Of a stretch of 64,000 bases of DNA, positions 3,899 through 54,000 are shown piece by piece. The position numbers were made by a program, and so were the translations under genes. Each line of letters begins with the position of its first letter. The stretch's first letter is position 1. Under the pieces are notes generated by a model. That model was not told the DNA's origin and made no database searches. It saw nothing but the letters and a program-made list of their open reading frames with translations. The DNA comes from an uncultured Pelagibacteraceae bacterium (GTDB lineage Bacteria > Pseudomonadota > Alphaproteobacteria > Pelagibacterales > Pelagibacteraceae), in assembly GCA_902552805.1 (NCBI GenBank), contig CACDIC010000004.1, positions 1 through 64,000 of the forward strand, given 5' to 3'.

Positions 3899-5400
3899 TA
3901 AAAAATCCCTTTTTTAAAATTTCTTTTTAGTTTACTCTTTTTTACTTCAATATTTAACTTATCAAGTTGACCTGGTTTTAATTTTTTTAAATTTTGTACA
4001 ACCTTTAAAAATCTATCACTTTCTTTTTTATCTAAGATATTTCCAGTTAAAGTTAAGAATTTATTGATATAATTTTTTCTTTTAAAAGGTCGTAAACCAT
4101 AAGGATGAGCATCTGCTACACCTTGCTGCTCAGTAATTTTTTTTCCATTATTGAGAGTTATTACCACTTTTGCACCAAATGCTTTCTTTCTAGGATTAGG
4201 ATCATGATATTTTTTAGTCCATTTTTTATCTTCATGAGTTTTTATTGATTTCCATATTTTAATTGTACTTTTTCTTTTAGCCCTTGCTTTTGTGTAAGAT
4301 TTTACGTGATGCCAAGTACCATCCTCAAGTGCAACAGCAAATATATACATTATTGAGTGATCTAATGTTTCTCTGCTAGCATTAGGATCCATTTTTTGTG
4401 GATCGTTTGCACCTGTTCCGATTACATAATGAGTGTGGTGACTTGTAAAAATATCTATTTTTTTGATCTGATTAAGATTTTGAACTTTCTTTTTAAGTTT
4501 TTTTGCTAAGTCAATTAAAGCTTGAGATTGATATTCTGCAGAATACTCTTTTGTATAAGTTTCAAGTATCGCTTTTTTTACTTCTCCTTTTTTTGGTAAT
4601 GGAACTTTATATAATGCATTTTTACCATCAAGTATTTTTGCTATCACACTATCCTCACCTTCATAAATTGGACTTGGTGCTCCTTCACCACGCATAACTC
4701 TATCAACAGCCTCTATAGCAAGTTTTCCTGCATGTGCGGGAGCATAAGCTTTCCAACTTGAAATTTCACCTTTTCTAGATTGTCTTGTGGAAATTGTTGT
4801 ATGTAATGCCTGCTGAATAGCTTGATAAATAGTTTCTGTTTTTAACCTTAACATTGAACCAATCCCAGCTGCAACACTTGGACCAAGGTGAGCTATATGA
4901 TCTACCTTATGTTTATGCAAACATATTCCTTTAACCAAATTAACCTGGACTTCATAAGCTGTAATTATTCCTCTTAAAAGATCTAAACCACTTTTTTTGT
5001 TTTGCTGAGCAACACTTATAAGTGGAGGAATATTATCTCCTGGATGACTATAGTCTGCTGCTAAAAAAGTATCATGAAAATCTAATTCTCTGACAGCAGT
5101 TCCATTAGACCATGCTGCCCATTCACAATCAAATTTTAATTTATTATTAACACCAAATAACGTTGCACCATTTCTTCTTGAATGCTTTAAGGCCATTTCT
5201 CTGGATGAAACAACAGGTTTTCTATTAAGTGAAGCTATAGCCACTGATGCATTATCAATAATCCTATTAATTGACATTTCAATCGCATCTTTATTTAATT
5301 TAGAATTATCGCTTGCAATTTCTGCAATTTTCCATGCAAGCTGATTTTTTTTTGGTAAATGAATTTTAGATGGGTAAACTTTAATTTTATGAACTATCAA
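3898..5400 (-). CDS. prpD: 2-methylcitrate dehydratase, MmgE/PrpD family
   Basis: MmgE/PrpD-like sequence ([36 protein letters not shown]); in prp cluster. Confidence 0.9.
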
Positions 5401-6209: not shown

Positions 6210-6833
6210 ATGAAACAATTAAATTTACAAAAGCTTCAAAATGACCTTCGAAATAAATTTTTAAAAGTCGGAGTAAAAATGATTGGTCCAGAAACAATTT
6301 TTTTTTCGATAGATACCAAGATAGGTAAGAATGTGATTATCGAACCTTATGTAGTAATAGGTCAAAAAGTGAGAATTGGAAACAATGTAACAATAAAATC
6401 TTTTTCTCATCTGGAAAATTGTAAAATAGAAAATAAAGTTGATATTGGACCATACGCCAGAATAAGACCAGGTGTAGTTTTAAAAAGTGGTTCAAAAATT
6501 GGAAATTTTGTTGAAATCAAAAAAAGTACTTTAGGTATAAATTCAAAAGTAAACCACTTAACATATATCGGTGATAGTGAAATAGGTAAATCAGTCAACA
6601 TTGGCGCTGGAACAATTACTTGTAATTATGATGGAGTAAAAAAGAATAAAACTAAAATAAAAGACAATGTTTTTATTGGCTCAAATTCATCATTGGTAGC
6701 ACCAGTTACAATCGAAAAGAATAGTACAGTTGGGGCTGGTTCGGTTATAACAAAAAATGTGAAAAAAAAATCATTAGCATTAACGAGAAGTTTACAGACT
6801 GAAATCAAAAATTATAAAAGAAAGTCTAAATAG
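6210..6833 (+). CDS. glmU: GlmU C-terminal half only (left-handed beta-helix glucosamine-1-phosphate N-acetyltransferase-like)
   Basis: [74 protein letters not shown] match the GlmU acetyltransferase domain; no N-terminal uridylyltransferase domain. Confidence 0.82.
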
Positions 6834-49835: not shown

Positions 49836-49877
49836 AAATAGATGTTAAATCAAGTATTAAACAACTTCTTTTATATT

Positions 49878-49916
49878 GCCCTCGTGGTGAAATTGGTAGA
49901 CACAAAGGACTTAAAA
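49878..49916 (+). pseudogene. Displaced 5' fragment of tRNA-Leu(UAA)
   Basis: gccctcgtggtgaaattggtagacacaaaggacttaaaa, identical to the first 39 nt of the tRNA at 51985, diverging just after the anticodon. Confidence 0.95.
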
Positions 49917-49972
49917 AGTGTCGTGTTTTACTATTAAGATAATAAAATCAGCACTTCTAGTTAAAATCACTC

Positions 49973-49992
49973 TCGTGTAGTTCTCGTGTAGT
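49973..49992 (+). repeat. Paired TCGTGTAGT repeat, copy 1
   Basis: tcgtgtagttctcgtgtagt; identical 20 bp at 50807-50826; internal 11-bp periodicity. Confidence 0.9.
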
Positions 49993-50051
49993 CGGTGGAA
50001 GACACAGATTATAGACTTCACGATTAGTAAAAGTGTGATATTTAGTACACG

Positions 50052-50714
50052 ATGAAAAATATTAATTCAATCAGAAAAAAAGAAGCAGATAAATATTTTT
50101 TAAGAAACAAAGATTCTTTGTCTGTAAAAGATGAAAAAATTTTCAATTTAATTAAGATTAATTCTATTAAAGCAAATAATATTTTAGAAATAGGATGTGC
50201 TAATGGAAATAAGTTAAATCAATATTCAAAATTATGTAAATCTAAAAAAAGTTATGGTGTTGATTTATCAAAAAAAGCAATTTTAGATGGAAAACGAAGA
50301 TATAAAGATCTTAAATTGTTGAATATTTCCAGTATTGAGATTGATAAAATTAAGGTAAATTTTGATTTTATAATATGTGGTTTTTTTCTTTATCACTTAG
50401 ATAGAGAACTTATATTTAAACAATTTGATTTAATTCATGACAAATTATCAAAAAATGGACTATTATTGATATGGGATTTTGATCCACTATTTAAACATTC
50501 AAATAAAGATCATAATACAAATAAATTAAACACTTTTAAAATGAGTTATGATAATTTTTTAATAGAAAGTGGATTATTTGAAATTGCTTACAAACACAAA
50601 TATTTAACTTCAAAAGTAATTTATAGAGATAAAAAAAAATTTAAATCTAATAGTGTTTCTTTAACACTATTTAAGAAAATTGAATTTAAAAAAGAATACC
50701 CAGAAAACATATAG
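50052..50714 (+). CDS. Class I SAM-dependent methyltransferase
   Basis: NILEIGCANGNKLNQYSKLCKSKKSYGVDLSKKAI, FDFIICGFFLYHL. Confidence 0.78.
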   Translation: MKNINSIRKKEADKYFLRNKDSLSVKDEKIFNLIKINSIKANNILEIGCANGNKLNQYSKLCKSKKSYGVDLSKKAILDGKRRYKDLKLLNISSIEIDKIKVNFDFIICGFFLYHLDRELIFKQFDLIHDKLSKNGLLLIWDFDPLFKHSNKDHNTNKLNTFKMSYDNFLIESGLFEIAYKHKYLTSKVIYRDKKKFKSNSVSLTLFKKIEFKKEYPENI

Positions 50715-50806
50715 TTTATTAAAAATATATTTTTATGTATTATGTAAATAATTTTTTAATACACGAGTAATTTGTTGATTATTTGTATCTCTTTTCATAT
50801 TATAAG

Positions 50807-50826
50807 TCGTGTAGTTCTCGTGTAGT
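50807..50826 (+). repeat. Paired TCGTGTAGT repeat, copy 2
   Basis: tcgtgtagttctcgtgtagt, identical to 49973-49992. Confidence 0.9.
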
Positions 50827-50898
50827 TAATGAATTACAAATTACTTGAAAGATGACATCAAATAAATATAAGAAAATAAAGTTTATTGAATGTTTCAA

Positions 50899-50936
50899 AA
50901 CCAGTACCAAACCAGTACCTAAAGAGATAATATAAA
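50899..50936 (+). repeat. Tandem CCAGTACC repeat (11-bp phase), copy 1
   Basis: aaccagtaccaaaccagtacctaaagagataatataaa; aligns 30/38 to 51881-51918. Confidence 0.75.
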
Positions 50937-50940
50937 CCTC

Positions 50941-51513
50941 ATGAAACGCTTAATAGCATATATGTTCCTGGTTCTAGTTTTAACATTAAGTCCTCAATCT
51001 TGGACCAAGGCTAATGATATTGGTGAATTTGAGATAGAAGGAATTAGTATAGGCGATAGTTTGCTCGATTATTTTAGTATAACAGAAATAAATAAAGCTA
51101 TTGATGAATCTAAAGATGATAGAGTCTACAAAGTTAAAAGTTTTGTTGAGCAAAAATTTAAAATATACGACGCTGTCCAAATATCTTATAAAGCAAATGA
51201 TAACAAAAAAATTATAACAAGTATTGCTGGTGTTATTTCATTTCCAAACAAAATTGATTTGTGTAAAAAAAAGATGTACCAAATTGATAACGATTTAATT
51301 AATTTATTTCCAAGTGCTGTTAGAAAAGATTGGGGAAAGTATGATAATCATGATAATTCAGGGCATTATTTTCCTATCACTTTTTATTTTGATGACGCAT
51401 CATTGGCTATGGTCTCTTGTCATGATTGGAACAAAAGTACTAGAATTGATGACAATTTAAAAGTTTCTTTGTTTGAAGCAAAATATGCATCATATGTAAA
51501 AAATCAAAATTGA
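50941..51513 (+). CDS. Hypothetical exported protein
   Basis: N-terminal signal MKRLIAYMFLVLVLTLSPQSWTKA; no family recognised. Confidence 0.65.
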   Translation: MKRLIAYMFLVLVLTLSPQSWTKANDIGEFEIEGISIGDSLLDYFSITEINKAIDESKDDRVYKVKSFVEQKFKIYDAVQISYKANDNKKIITSIAGVISFPNKIDLCKKKMYQIDNDLINLFPSAVRKDWGKYDNHDNSGHYFPITFYFDDASLAMVSCHDWNKSTRIDDNLKVSLFEAKYASYVKNQN

Positions 51514-51522
51514 TATTAAAAA

Positions 51523-51867
51523 ATGTTTACTGCAAAAATAATTATAATTACTTTCTTATCAACATTCTTTGGTATATTTCTAGTACAATATCTTGAAAAT
51601 AAAGTTAAATATCAAAAGATCCTAAAAATTATTTTATTAGTATTTATTATTTTTTCATTTTACAATTTTATAGCTGGTTTAAGTATGAGTTTTGGTTGGG
51701 AAGACCCTTTGTCAAACACAAGTCCAGAGCAAAAAGGACGAGCTGCTGCTAGAAGAGGAGGTGGATTAGTTTTATTGATCATTAGTTTCTGGCCTTATAT
51801 TCTAACATTTGCTGGAGCATATATGAGTTGGTTATATTATATGCTTTTTAAAAAAATTAGTGCATAG
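51523..51867 (+). CDS. Hypothetical multi-TM membrane protein
   Basis: Three hydrophobic segments; 9 nt after the preceding ORF. Confidence 0.6.
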   Translation: MFTAKIIIITFLSTFFGIFLVQYLENKVKYQKILKIILLVFIIFSFYNFIAGLSMSFGWEDPLSNTSPEQKGRAAARRGGGLVLLIISFWPYILTFAGAYMSWLYYMLFKKISA

Positions 51868-51880
51868 GATAATTTAGAAC

Positions 51881-51918
51881 AACTGGTACTCAACTGGTAC
51901 CTAAGGAGATAAAATAAA
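51881..51918 (+). repeat. Tandem ACTGGTAC repeat (11-bp phase), copy 2
   Basis: aactggtactcaactggtacctaaggagataaaataaa. Confidence 0.75.
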
Positions 51919-51957
51919 AAAATTTTACTTATTCATCTTGTTCAATTATAAATATTA
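51915..51957 (+). repeat. Long direct repeat, copy 2
   Basis: taaaaaaattttacttattcatcttgttcaattataaatatta; see copy 1 at 44379. Confidence 0.85.
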
Positions 51958-51984
51958 GCATAAACACTCATGAAATTCACAAAT

Positions 51985-52070
51985 GCCCTCGTGGTGAAAT
52001 TGGTAGACACAAAGGACTTAAAATCCTTGCCGCTTGCGGAGTGCCAGTTCGAGTCTGGCCGAGGGCACCA
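51985..52070 (+). tRNA. tRNA-Leu(UAA), CCA encoded
   Basis: Acceptor GCCCTCG/CGAGGGC, anticodon loop CTTAAAA, long variable arm, TTCGA loop. Confidence 0.97.
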
Positions 52071-52077
52071 CTCATAG

Positions 52078-53007
52078 ATGAAACAATATTTCAGAGTAAT
52101 TCTCGGCCGACAACATAAACACTTTCAAGATTGTTTTGATGGAAAATTTGTTGGTGTTGGCTTCATACCAGATATAGATTTAAAAAATGATTTAGTAGAT
52201 GACTGGAGGGAGTTTAATAAAAAATTTATTCCTATCTATTTAAAAAGTAATCCTGGTGCCCACAAAGTGAAAGCTGGTTTAGCATGCAGTGCAATACATA
52301 CTGTTGCAAAAAGAATGAATAATGATGATTTTGTTTTATGTCCAGATGGGCAAAGAAATTATAAAATTGCAAAAATTTCAGGAGATTATTTTTATAACCC
52401 AGAAAAACCATCGATAGTTCATAGAAGACCTGTCGAGTGGTTATCTACTACGATTAAGAGAGATGAAATGAGTGAAGCATTAAGAAACTCTACAGGTGCC
52501 ATAGGAACAATTTCAGATATTTCAAAACACGCTGATGAGATTGAACAATTTATTAAAGGTGAGAGTCCAATTTCAATATCATCTAAAGATAAGGATATTG
52601 AAAATCCAAGTATGTTTGCTTTGGAAATGCATTTGGAAGATTTTTTAATTAAAAATTGGGAACACACTCCATTAGCACAAAATTATGATATTTATGAAGA
52701 CGAAGAAGTTTTGGGAAAACAATTCCCAACTGACACAGGACCGATTGATATACTTGCAGTGAGTAAAGATAAAAAGGAATATCTAGTTATAGAGTTAAAA
52801 AAGGGTAGAGCTAGCGATAGTGTTGTTGGACAAGTGCAAAGATACATGGGTTTCATTAAAGAAGAATTTTTAGAAGAGGGACAGCGAGTTAGAGGTGCCA
52901 TAATAGCTTTAGAGAACGATTTAAAAGTAAAAAGAGCTTTGAGTGTTACTAATGATATTGATTTTTATGAATATAAAATAAATTTTGATTTGGTAAAAAG
53001 TAAATAA
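52078..53007 (+). CDS. Probable PD-(D/E)XK nuclease: Mrr N-terminal-like domain plus NucS/DUF91-like C-terminal nuclease
   Basis: N-terminal part ...KIAKISGDYFYNPEKPSIVHRRPVEWLSTTIKRDEMSEALRNSTGAIGTISDISKHADEI resembles Mrr-type restriction proteins; C-terminal GPIDILAVSKDKKEYLVIELKKGRASDSVVGQVQRYM gives D...ExK. Confidence 0.72.
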   Translation: MKQYFRVILGRQHKHFQDCFDGKFVGVGFIPDIDLKNDLVDDWREFNKKFIPIYLKSNPGAHKVKAGLACSAIHTVAKRMNNDDFVLCPDGQRNYKIAKISGDYFYNPEKPSIVHRRPVEWLSTTIKRDEMSEALRNSTGAIGTISDISKHADEIEQFIKGESPISISSKDKDIENPSMFALEMHLEDFLIKNWEHTPLAQNYDIYEDEEVLGKQFPTDTGPIDILAVSKDKKEYLVIELKKGRASDSVVGQVQRYMGFIKEEFLEEGQRVRGAIIALENDLKVKRALSVTNDIDFYEYKINFDLVKSK

Positions 53008-53070
53008 TGATAAAATATGAATTGGTAGATGTCAGGGATTTATGGTCTACTTACAACTACCAACCACAAG

Positions 53071-53110
53071 AATGTGCATTAATGTGCATAAGTGTGCATC
53101 AATGTGCATT
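53071..53110 (+). repeat. Four tandem 10-bp repeats (consensus aATGTGCATt)
   Basis: aatgtgcatt aatgtgcata agtgtgcatc aatgtgcatt. Confidence 0.92.
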
Positions 53111-53169
53111 AAAAAAATATGAAGAAAATTAAAATGCTTGTAAAAACAAAACTATTGGGCTTGGGAGTA

Positions 53170-53227
53170 GACTTAAAATCCTTGCCGCTTGCGGAGTGCC
53201 AGTTCGAGTCTGGCCGAGGGCACCACT
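53170..53227 (+). pseudogene. Displaced 3' fragment of tRNA-Leu(UAA) including CCA
   Basis: gacttaaaatccttgccgcttgcggagtgccagttcgagtctggccgagggcaccact, identical to 52015-52072. Confidence 0.95.
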
Positions 53228-53229
53228 AA

Positions 53230-54000
53230 ATGAATAGGGTTCAAATCATATCTGACAAAAATCAAAGATCTTTAAAAATAAAATCAGCAATCCAAAAAAA
53301 AATTAATCAAAATAAAATTAAAAGATCCAATATTACAATTGTTATCGGGGGCGATGGTTTCATGCTTCAAACACTAAAAAAGAATAGAAAATTAAAAAAG
53401 TTTTTTTACGGTATAAATTCTGGGAGTTATGGATTTTTAATGAATAAATTTTCATCAAAAAATATCATAAGTAATTTGCATAAAGCAAAAATGATAACGA
53501 TCTCTCCGCTGGAGATGGTTGTTAAAAATAATAAAAATGAAACTAAAAAACATATAGCTATAAATGAAGTTTCGATTTTAAGACAAAGTAGACAAGCTGC
53601 GTCTTTATCTATTCATCATGGTTCTAAACAAGTCATAAAAAAACTTGTTTCTGATGGTGTACTAGTTTCCACACCTGCTGGAAGCACTGCTTATAATTTA
53701 TCAGTTCACGGACCTATATTAAGTTTGAATTCAAAAAGATTGTCCATATCTCCTATAAGTCCATTTAGACCGAGAAGATGGAAGGGCAAAATTGTAAGTG
53801 ATAAATCTAAAATAAATATCAGAAACTTAAATTCTATAAAAAGACCAATTTCTGCTGTTGCGGATAATATTGAGGTCAGGAATGCAAAAAATATTATAGT
53901 GAAAACTAATCAAAAAATTAAATTTAATCTTCTCTATGATAGAAACAGAAGTTTGCAAAAAAAAATCAAAATAGAACAATTGAGAAAAGAAACGTATTGA
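53230..54000 (+). CDS. nadK: NAD kinase
   Basis: IVIGGDGFMLQTLKK, INSGSYGFLMN, VSTPAGSTAYNLSVHGPIL. Confidence 0.92.
   Translation: MNRVQIISDKNQRSLKIKSAIQKKINQNKIKRSNITIVIGGDGFMLQTLKKNRKLKKFFYGINSGSYGFLMNKFSSKNIISNLHKAKMITISPLEMVVKNNKNETKKHIAINEVSILRQSRQAASLSIHHGSKQVIKKLVSDGVLVSTPAGSTAYNLSVHGPILSLNSKRLSISPISPFRPRRWKGKIVSDKSKINIRNLNSIKRPISAVADNIEVRNAKNIIVKTNQKIKFNLLYDRNRSLQKKIKIEQLRKETY

What the first reader, a model, noticed from the sequence alone, without database searches (positions are those of the whole stretch)
52015..53227. Roughly 1.2-kb integrase-less cassette placing a predicted Mrr-N/PD-(D/E)XK nuclease directly behind a tRNA
Between the identical tRNA 3' segments (52015-52072 and 53170-53227) lies one gene. 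Its ATG (52078) is 8 nt after the CCA end, with no room for its own promoter, so it may be co-transcribed with tRNA-Leu and released by tRNA 3' processing. Sequence motifs suggest a DNA-recognition domain like those in Mrr-type restriction proteins plus a NucS/DUF91-like nuclease core (GPIDILAV...VIELKKG). Inference: a minimal single-gene defence cargo in a tRNA-linked satellite, loosely comparable to tRNA-inserted tycheposon islands described in Prochlorococcus.
Basis: partly seen in the sequence, partly recalled or inferred. Interest (0 to 1): 0.86.

Follow-up and report, generated by a model that had tools for sequence, protein, structure and literature searches.

The report
Integrase-less anti-phage cassette using phage arms
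In an abundant ocean bacterium (SAR11), a single putative anti-phage nuclease gene sits in a 1.16-kb insert in a leucine tRNA gene that has no integrase of its own but carries the integrase-binding arm of viruses that use the same site, so it may spread with the enzyme of the phages it probably fights.

Summary
Two identical 58-bp tRNA-Leu(UAA) 3' segments (52015-52072, 53170-53227) flank one 309-aa gene in a Pelagibacter genome.

The flanks are recombination products, not a duplication: in two relatives (L003, G409) the two 3' halves differ. A 9-bp core, GACTTAAAA (anticodon loop), is the crossover.

Four TGTGCA repeats lie 97-67 bp before the right-hand core. IMG/VR phage contigs, and two prophages in other SAR11 genomes, have the same motif at the same distance (-97/-86/-75) between their integrase gene and the same core. 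The cassette most likely moves with a phage integrase supplied in trans; none was found in its own (87% complete) genome.

The gene matches PADLOC candidate PDC-S02 over its whole length (E 2.6e-135). AlphaFold/Foldseek gives a YTH/EVE-like modified-base reader plus a NucS-like PD-(D/E)XK nuclease, so "Mrr-N" is wrong but a Type IV-like restriction role is plausible. dN/dS is 0.02-0.11.

The promoter-less start belongs to the site: in 16 of 16 relatives with nothing inserted there, nadK starts 2-7 nt after the tRNA CCA.

Other cassettes of this kind carry other cargo (DUF3427-NOV_C, small secreted-type proteins). Anti-phage function and mobility are untested.

The parts
51985..52070 (+). tRNA-Leu(UAA), complete; left junction (attL-like), inferred hybrid of a resident 5' half and a cassette-borne 3' half
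   Evidence: ARAGORN; the halves differ in L003 and G409
52015..52023 (+). 9-bp crossover core GACTTAAAA, left copy
   Evidence: only sequence shared by the 5'-half copy, the 3'-half copy and the phage attP
52015..52072 (+). tRNA 3' segment, copy 1
52078..53007 (+). 309-aa PDC-S02 protein: YTH/EVE-like domain (about 1-160) plus NucS-like PD-(D/E)XK nuclease (about 175-300)
53019..53060 (+). conserved segment after the cargo, tRNA-D-arm-like, shared by cassettes with different cargo; role unknown
53072..53109 (+). four direct repeats ATGTGCAT/GTGTGCAT at 10-bp spacing: arm-type integrase-site candidates
53170..53178 (+). crossover core GACTTAAAA, right copy (attR-like), preceded by GTA as in the phage attP
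53170..53227 (+). tRNA 3' segment, copy 2 (resident remnant)
53230..54000 (+). nadK, the native gene behind tRNA-Leu
   Evidence: Pfam NAD_kinase_C 2.6e-13; conserved neighbour in relatives
49877..49916 (+). stranded tRNA-Leu 5' half ending in the core; left edge of the upstream cassettes
49970..50826 (+). upstream cassette with a methyltransferase-like gene (50052-50714), bounded by matching CTCGTGTAGTT pairs at 49970-49992 and 50804-50826

Best explanation
The unit 52015-53178 is a non-autonomous, site-specifically inserted cassette. SHOWN: it lies between two copies of a 9-bp anticodon-loop core (GACTTAAAA) of tRNA-Leu(UAA); it has no integrase; in relatives the insert brings its own tRNA 3' half; its right end carries TGTGCA repeats with the motif, near-identical spacing and distance to the core found between the integrase gene and the attP core of temperate T7-like SAR11 phages, two of which sit as prophages at this tRNA in other genomes. 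INFERRED: the integrase of that phage family binds the cassette's arm and inserts or excises it in trans when such a phage infects or is resident. The cargo takes nadK's promoter-less slot directly behind the tRNA and is probably expressed from the tRNA-Leu transcript. INFERRED from the fold: the product is a modification-dependent (Type IV-like) restriction nuclease, in which a YTH/EVE-like domain reads a modified base and a NucS-like PD-(D/E)XK domain cuts, so that it restricts phages with modified DNA.
For: Identical flanks with shared core. Unequal 3' halves in L003 and G409. TGTGCA arms at -97/-87/-77/-67 in the window against -97/-86/-75 in phage attP contigs and the G072 prophage, same array in further phage contigs and in the G376 prophage. 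The prophages carry integrase next to this arm. No such integrase in G000, G343, G197 or G409. Same cassette ends with other cargo in G197, G343 and G409. nadK occupies the same slot in empty sites. PDC-S02 full length, NucS fold and invariant D224/E239/K241/Q252, YTH-like reader fold, dN/dS 0.02-0.11, RM neighbours in L008 and L109. EVE/YTH-PD-(D/E)XK enzymes are described in the literature (PMC7641849).
Against: No excision, circle or packaging was observed. The phage's second arm (+127/+139) is not present in the cassette, so it may be only partly competent. The integrase is rare in sampled genomes (2 of 399). The YTH match is at fold level with modest TM-scores (0.46-0.49). Not all cassette cargo looks like defence. 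PDC-S02 itself is a computational candidate; I found no direct test in the papers searched.
Confidence: 0.6

Rival explanations
1. A fossil: what is left of a decayed prophage at this tRNA (only its attR arm and core) that picked up a defence gene, is no longer mobile, and spreads by homologous recombination across the tRNA-nadK region.
For: The second phage arm is missing; CIME-type decay and accretion is well described for other elements (PMC5704250); no integrase in the host.
Against: Different single-gene cargo with the same compact end in four SAR11 lineages, including another genus, and a cassette-borne tRNA 3' half that differs from the resident one, suggest repeated insertion of ready-made units.
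Confidence: 0.25
2. The cassette is real, but the nuclease serves the element rather than defence: for example it cuts empty tRNA-Leu sites or competing phage DNA to favour its own spread (homing-like or superinfection exclusion).
For: A nuclease is the only gene in the unit; the cassette occupies the attachment site of a phage family.
Confidence: 0.1
3. Simple duplication of a tRNA end, or an assembly artefact.
For: The two copies are 100% identical in the window.
Against: Same arrangement in several independent assemblies, with unequal halves in L003 and G409; phage-like arms at one end.
Confidence: 0.02

Closest known systems
Temperate T7-like SAR11 phages at tRNA-Leu (prophages in G072 and G376; IMG/VR contigs L079, L081-L083, L090-L096)
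   Same: Same 9-bp core GACTTAAAA, same GTA before it, same TGTGCA arm array at about -97 to -75; inserted between tRNA-Leu and nadK.
   Different: The phages encode the integrase and virion genes and have a second arm; their attP has no tRNA half. The cassette has one cargo gene and, judged from relatives, brings a tRNA 3' half.
CIMEs (cis-mobilizable elements) and tandem accretion at tRNA genes
   Same: Flanked by att sites at a tRNA gene, without integrase or transfer genes; stacked with other elements.
   Different: CIMEs are described as decay products of ICEs or IMEs (PMC5704250); here the related autonomous element is a phage, and the ends are re-used with different cargo.
Phage satellites (PICI, P4-like, PLE, PICMI)
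   Same: tRNA or att-site insertion tied to a phage; often carry defence genes.
   Different: Described as encoding their own integrase for excision (PMC10803314); this unit has none, and packaging is unknown.
Tycheposons
   Same: tRNA-linked marine mobile elements with cargo.
   Different: Described with a tyrosine recombinase and 4-200 kb in size (PMC10872708); this unit is about 1.16 kb without recombinase.
EVE/YTH-PD-(D/E)XK modification-dependent restriction enzymes; PADLOC PDC-S02
   Same: Full-length PDC-S02 family match; PUA-superfamily-type reader fold plus PD-(D/E)XK nuclease.
   Different: Nuclease domain closest to NucS/EndoMS; target modification unknown; no experimental test found in the papers searched.

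Membership tests
PDC-S02 (PADLOC candidate) | Full-length match to the family model | tested here: met
   E 2.6e-135 over residues 1-307
PDC-S02 (PADLOC candidate) | Anti-phage activity | not testable with these tools
   needs plaque assays
Modification-dependent (Type IV-like) restriction enzyme with PUA-type reader | Nuclease domain with intact PD-(D/E)XK residues | tested here: met
   NucS_C 4e-8; EndoMS fold 5e-7; D224, E239, K241, Q252 invariant in 8 relatives
Modification-dependent (Type IV-like) restriction enzyme with PUA-type reader | Modified-base reader domain of the PUA superfamily | tested here: met
   fold level only: YTH domains E 3e-4, prob 1.00, TM 0.46-0.49
Modification-dependent (Type IV-like) restriction enzyme with PUA-type reader | Cleavage that depends on DNA modification | not testable with these tools
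   needs biochemistry
Mrr-type (Mrr_N) restriction protein | N-terminal Mrr_N winged-helix domain | tested here: not met
   no Mrr_N hit reported; N-terminal fold is YTH-like
Phage satellite (PICI/PICMI type) | Own integrase | tested here: not met
   one ORF only; the two integrase genes of the genome lie on other contigs
Phage satellite (PICI/PICMI type) | Helper-dependent mobilisation and packaging | not testable with these tools
   arm-site match is indirect evidence only
Tycheposon | Tyrosine recombinase | tested here: not met
   absent
CIME | att-flanked, without integrase or transfer genes | tested here: met
CIME | Derived from an ICE or IME | tested here: inconclusive
   the related autonomous element found is a phage; the cassette holds no conjugation gene

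The most novel reading that the evidence does not exclude
SAR11 tRNA-Leu hosts a class of integrase-less cassettes whose ends copy the arm-type sites of local temperate phages. The phages' own integrase is thus a shared insertion enzyme, and part of what it carries is anti-phage nucleases (PDC-S02, DUF3427-NOV_C) expressed from the tRNA promoter.
Probability: 0.45. Interest if true: 0.8.

Novelty: new variant of a known kind. Interest (0 to 1): 0.64.

Why it matters
SAR11 is among the most abundant bacterial groups, and how its streamlined genomes gain defence genes is open. A one-gene module that needs only a phage-mimicking att site would be a very small mobile defence unit, and the arm-site match names a specific helper integrase that can be tested in vitro.

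Tried and rejected
Mrr-N domain: rejected. Missing promoter as a sign of a special mechanism: rejected, because nadK has the same layout in empty sites. Duplication or assembly artefact: rejected. PDC-S02 in annotated phages: no match; in viral contigs the single-protein scan found none, and the profile scan found two relatives whose contigs hold no tRNA gene. A phage whose attP has the left end of the upstream cassettes (GACTTAAAAGCCGAGGGAT): none in IMG/VR. The genome's own C3 integrase as helper: unlikely, it adjoins a partial tRNA-like sequence that looks like tRNA-Gly and is rare in the genus. The left junction of the G072 prophage was not found. An RNA hairpin in the shared post-cargo segment is not conserved. 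No convincing family hit for the 190- and 114-aa ORFs of the neighbouring upstream cassette. L005, L009 and L010 were left out of the protein alignment because the fetched stretches held stops.

Full report
WHAT IS THERE. The window belongs to a Pelagibacter (SAR11) assembly, G000, contig C4; the closest named hits are Pelagibacteraceae assemblies. tRNA-Leu(UAA) lies at 51985-52070. Its 3' part, 52015-52072, recurs at 53170-53227 with 58/58 identity, and its 5' part, 51984-52023, recurs at 49877-49916 with 40/40 identity. The only sequence shared by all three copies is GACTTAAAA, the anticodon loop plus two bases. One ORF (52078-53007, 309 aa) lies between the 3' copies. nadK follows at 53230.

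THE SITE. In relatives with nothing inserted downstream (for example L048, L050, L058) tRNA-Leu is followed directly by nadK, whose ATG lies 2-7 nt after CCA in 16 of 16 cases examined. Joining window 49877-49916 to 53179 onward gives this same tRNA-nadK arrangement. Stranded 5' halves upstream of tRNA-Leu are common in the genus, and 3' halves downstream are rare.

RECOMBINATION, NOT DUPLICATION. In L003 the complete tRNA has variable arm CCATTTATGG while the downstream 3' remnant has CCCTTTTGGG; in G409 the T-arms also differ. There the 3' half next to the cargo must have come with the insert. In the window itself the two halves are identical, so this step is carried over from the relatives.

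THE PHAGE LINK. The cassette's right end has TGTGCA at -97, -87, -77 and -67 from the core; no other place in the 64-kb window has three or more within 120 bp. L003 has the motif at -96/-86/-76/-66 (one copy inverted), and L002, G197, G343 and G409 have the same kind of array. In G072 a prophage with phage structural and terminase-like genes (judged by eye from the ORFs) ends, in order, with a 349-aa tyrosine integrase (Pfam Phage_integrase 1.1e-13), TGTGCA-type repeats at -97/-86/-75, GTCGGTA and GACTTAAAA, followed by the tRNA-Leu 3' half and nadK. G376 has a 78% identical integrase with the same kind of attR. Uninserted phage contigs of IMG/VR show integrase, repeats, GTCGGTA, GACTTAAAA and then non-tRNA sequence, so the common core is just these 9 bp. 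Such a phage would interrupt tRNA-Leu unless it brings a spare; contig L093 does encode a complete tRNA-Leu(UAA). No relative of this integrase was found in G000 or in the other cassette carriers G343, G197 and G409. The natural inference is that the cassette is an integrase-less passenger of this integrase. The phage's second arm (+127/+139) has no counterpart in the cassette, so full competence is not shown.

MODULARITY. The same kind of end is attached to different cargo: PDC-S02 (window, L002, L003), a 334-aa DUF3427 + NOV_C protein in G343 (PADLOC PDC-S36 9e-42), and small proteins with signal-peptide-like N termini in G197 and G409. G409 belongs to another genus of the family. L001 carries a 97% identical PDC-S02 behind a damaged tRNA 3' half at a different locus.

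THE CARGO. Full-length match to PADLOC PDC-S02 (2.6e-135) and NucS_C in Pfam (4e-8). The full model (pLDDT 76) matches EndoMS/NucS in the PDB (5e-7); D224, E239, K241 and Q252 are invariant. The N-terminal domain modelled alone (pLDDT 87, pTM 0.81) matches YTH domains (3e-4, prob 1.00). Fusions of EVE or YTH-like domains with PD-(D/E)XK nucleases are described as putative modification-dependent restriction enzymes (PMC7641849; see also PMC7897488). The gene is under strong purifying selection, dN/dS 0.02-0.11 among four SAR11 copies. Relatives occur in other phyla and on plasmids; in L008 and L109 they adjoin type I or type IIG RM genes. It is not core: full-length in 1 of 300 genus genomes sampled, with 5 more matching in the nuclease half only.

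HOW IT PROBABLY WORKS. Shown: architecture, crossover core, shared arm sites, fold and selection. Inferred: a phage integrase acts in trans; expression by read-through from tRNA-Leu; restriction of phages with modified DNA. I put about 0.9 on site-specific insertion, 0.6 on phage-integrase mobilisation, and 0.6 on modification-dependent restriction.

NOVELTY. The protein is a member of a known kind. The integrase-less att cassette resembles CIMEs (PMC5704250) but is tied to a phage integrase and re-used with different cargo. Known satellites are described as encoding their own integrases (PMC10803314). I found no description of this arrangement in the papers searched, but the library is partial, and the original tycheposon and VEIME papers, which may touch on SAR11, were not among those held.

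Noticed in passing
L002, L049, L052-L064, L068, L072, L073 upstream of tRNA-Leu; window 49877-51984: Upstream cassettes are very common in the genus: each runs from a stranded tRNA 5' half to the next 5' half, with no integrase seen. Each carries at both ends a tandem pair of 8-9-mers (such as ACTGGTAC, ACTAGTAC, ACTTGCAC, ACCAGCAC) that matches between the two ends of one cassette but differs between cassettes (permutation p about 1e-4). Cargo includes pilin-like arrays and an N6_Mtase/Methylase_S pair. What reads the pair is unknown.
   Followed up: partly
window 50826-50900: Two upstream cassettes look fused: the expected tRNA 5' half and left end between them appear to be deleted.
   Followed up: partly
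L093 8235-8320 (minus strand): A phage contig with the same attP core encodes a complete tRNA-Leu(UAA), plausibly a replacement for the host gene it interrupts.
   Followed up: partly
L103 (G409:C2:48000-57000) at 4921-5005 and 6367-6453: Two complete tRNA-Leu(UAA) genes flank stacked inserts in another genus of the family.
   Followed up: no
window 53019-53060; also L003, L060, G343, G409: A conserved tRNA-D-arm-like segment (GGTAGAYGTCARGGAYTTAYGGTCTAC) follows unrelated cargo just before the arm repeats; its role is unknown and an RNA hairpin is not conserved.
   Followed up: partly
G000:C3:6407-7357 (L107): The window's genome has an integrase beside a partial tRNA-like sequence (looks like the 5' half of a tRNA-Gly) on another contig, rare in the genus.
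   Followed up: partly
L055 6188-16392: A 10-kb insert at the same tRNA with a VapE/DUF5906-type primase-like protein looks like a phage satellite or small prophage with its own, different arm repeats.
   Followed up: no
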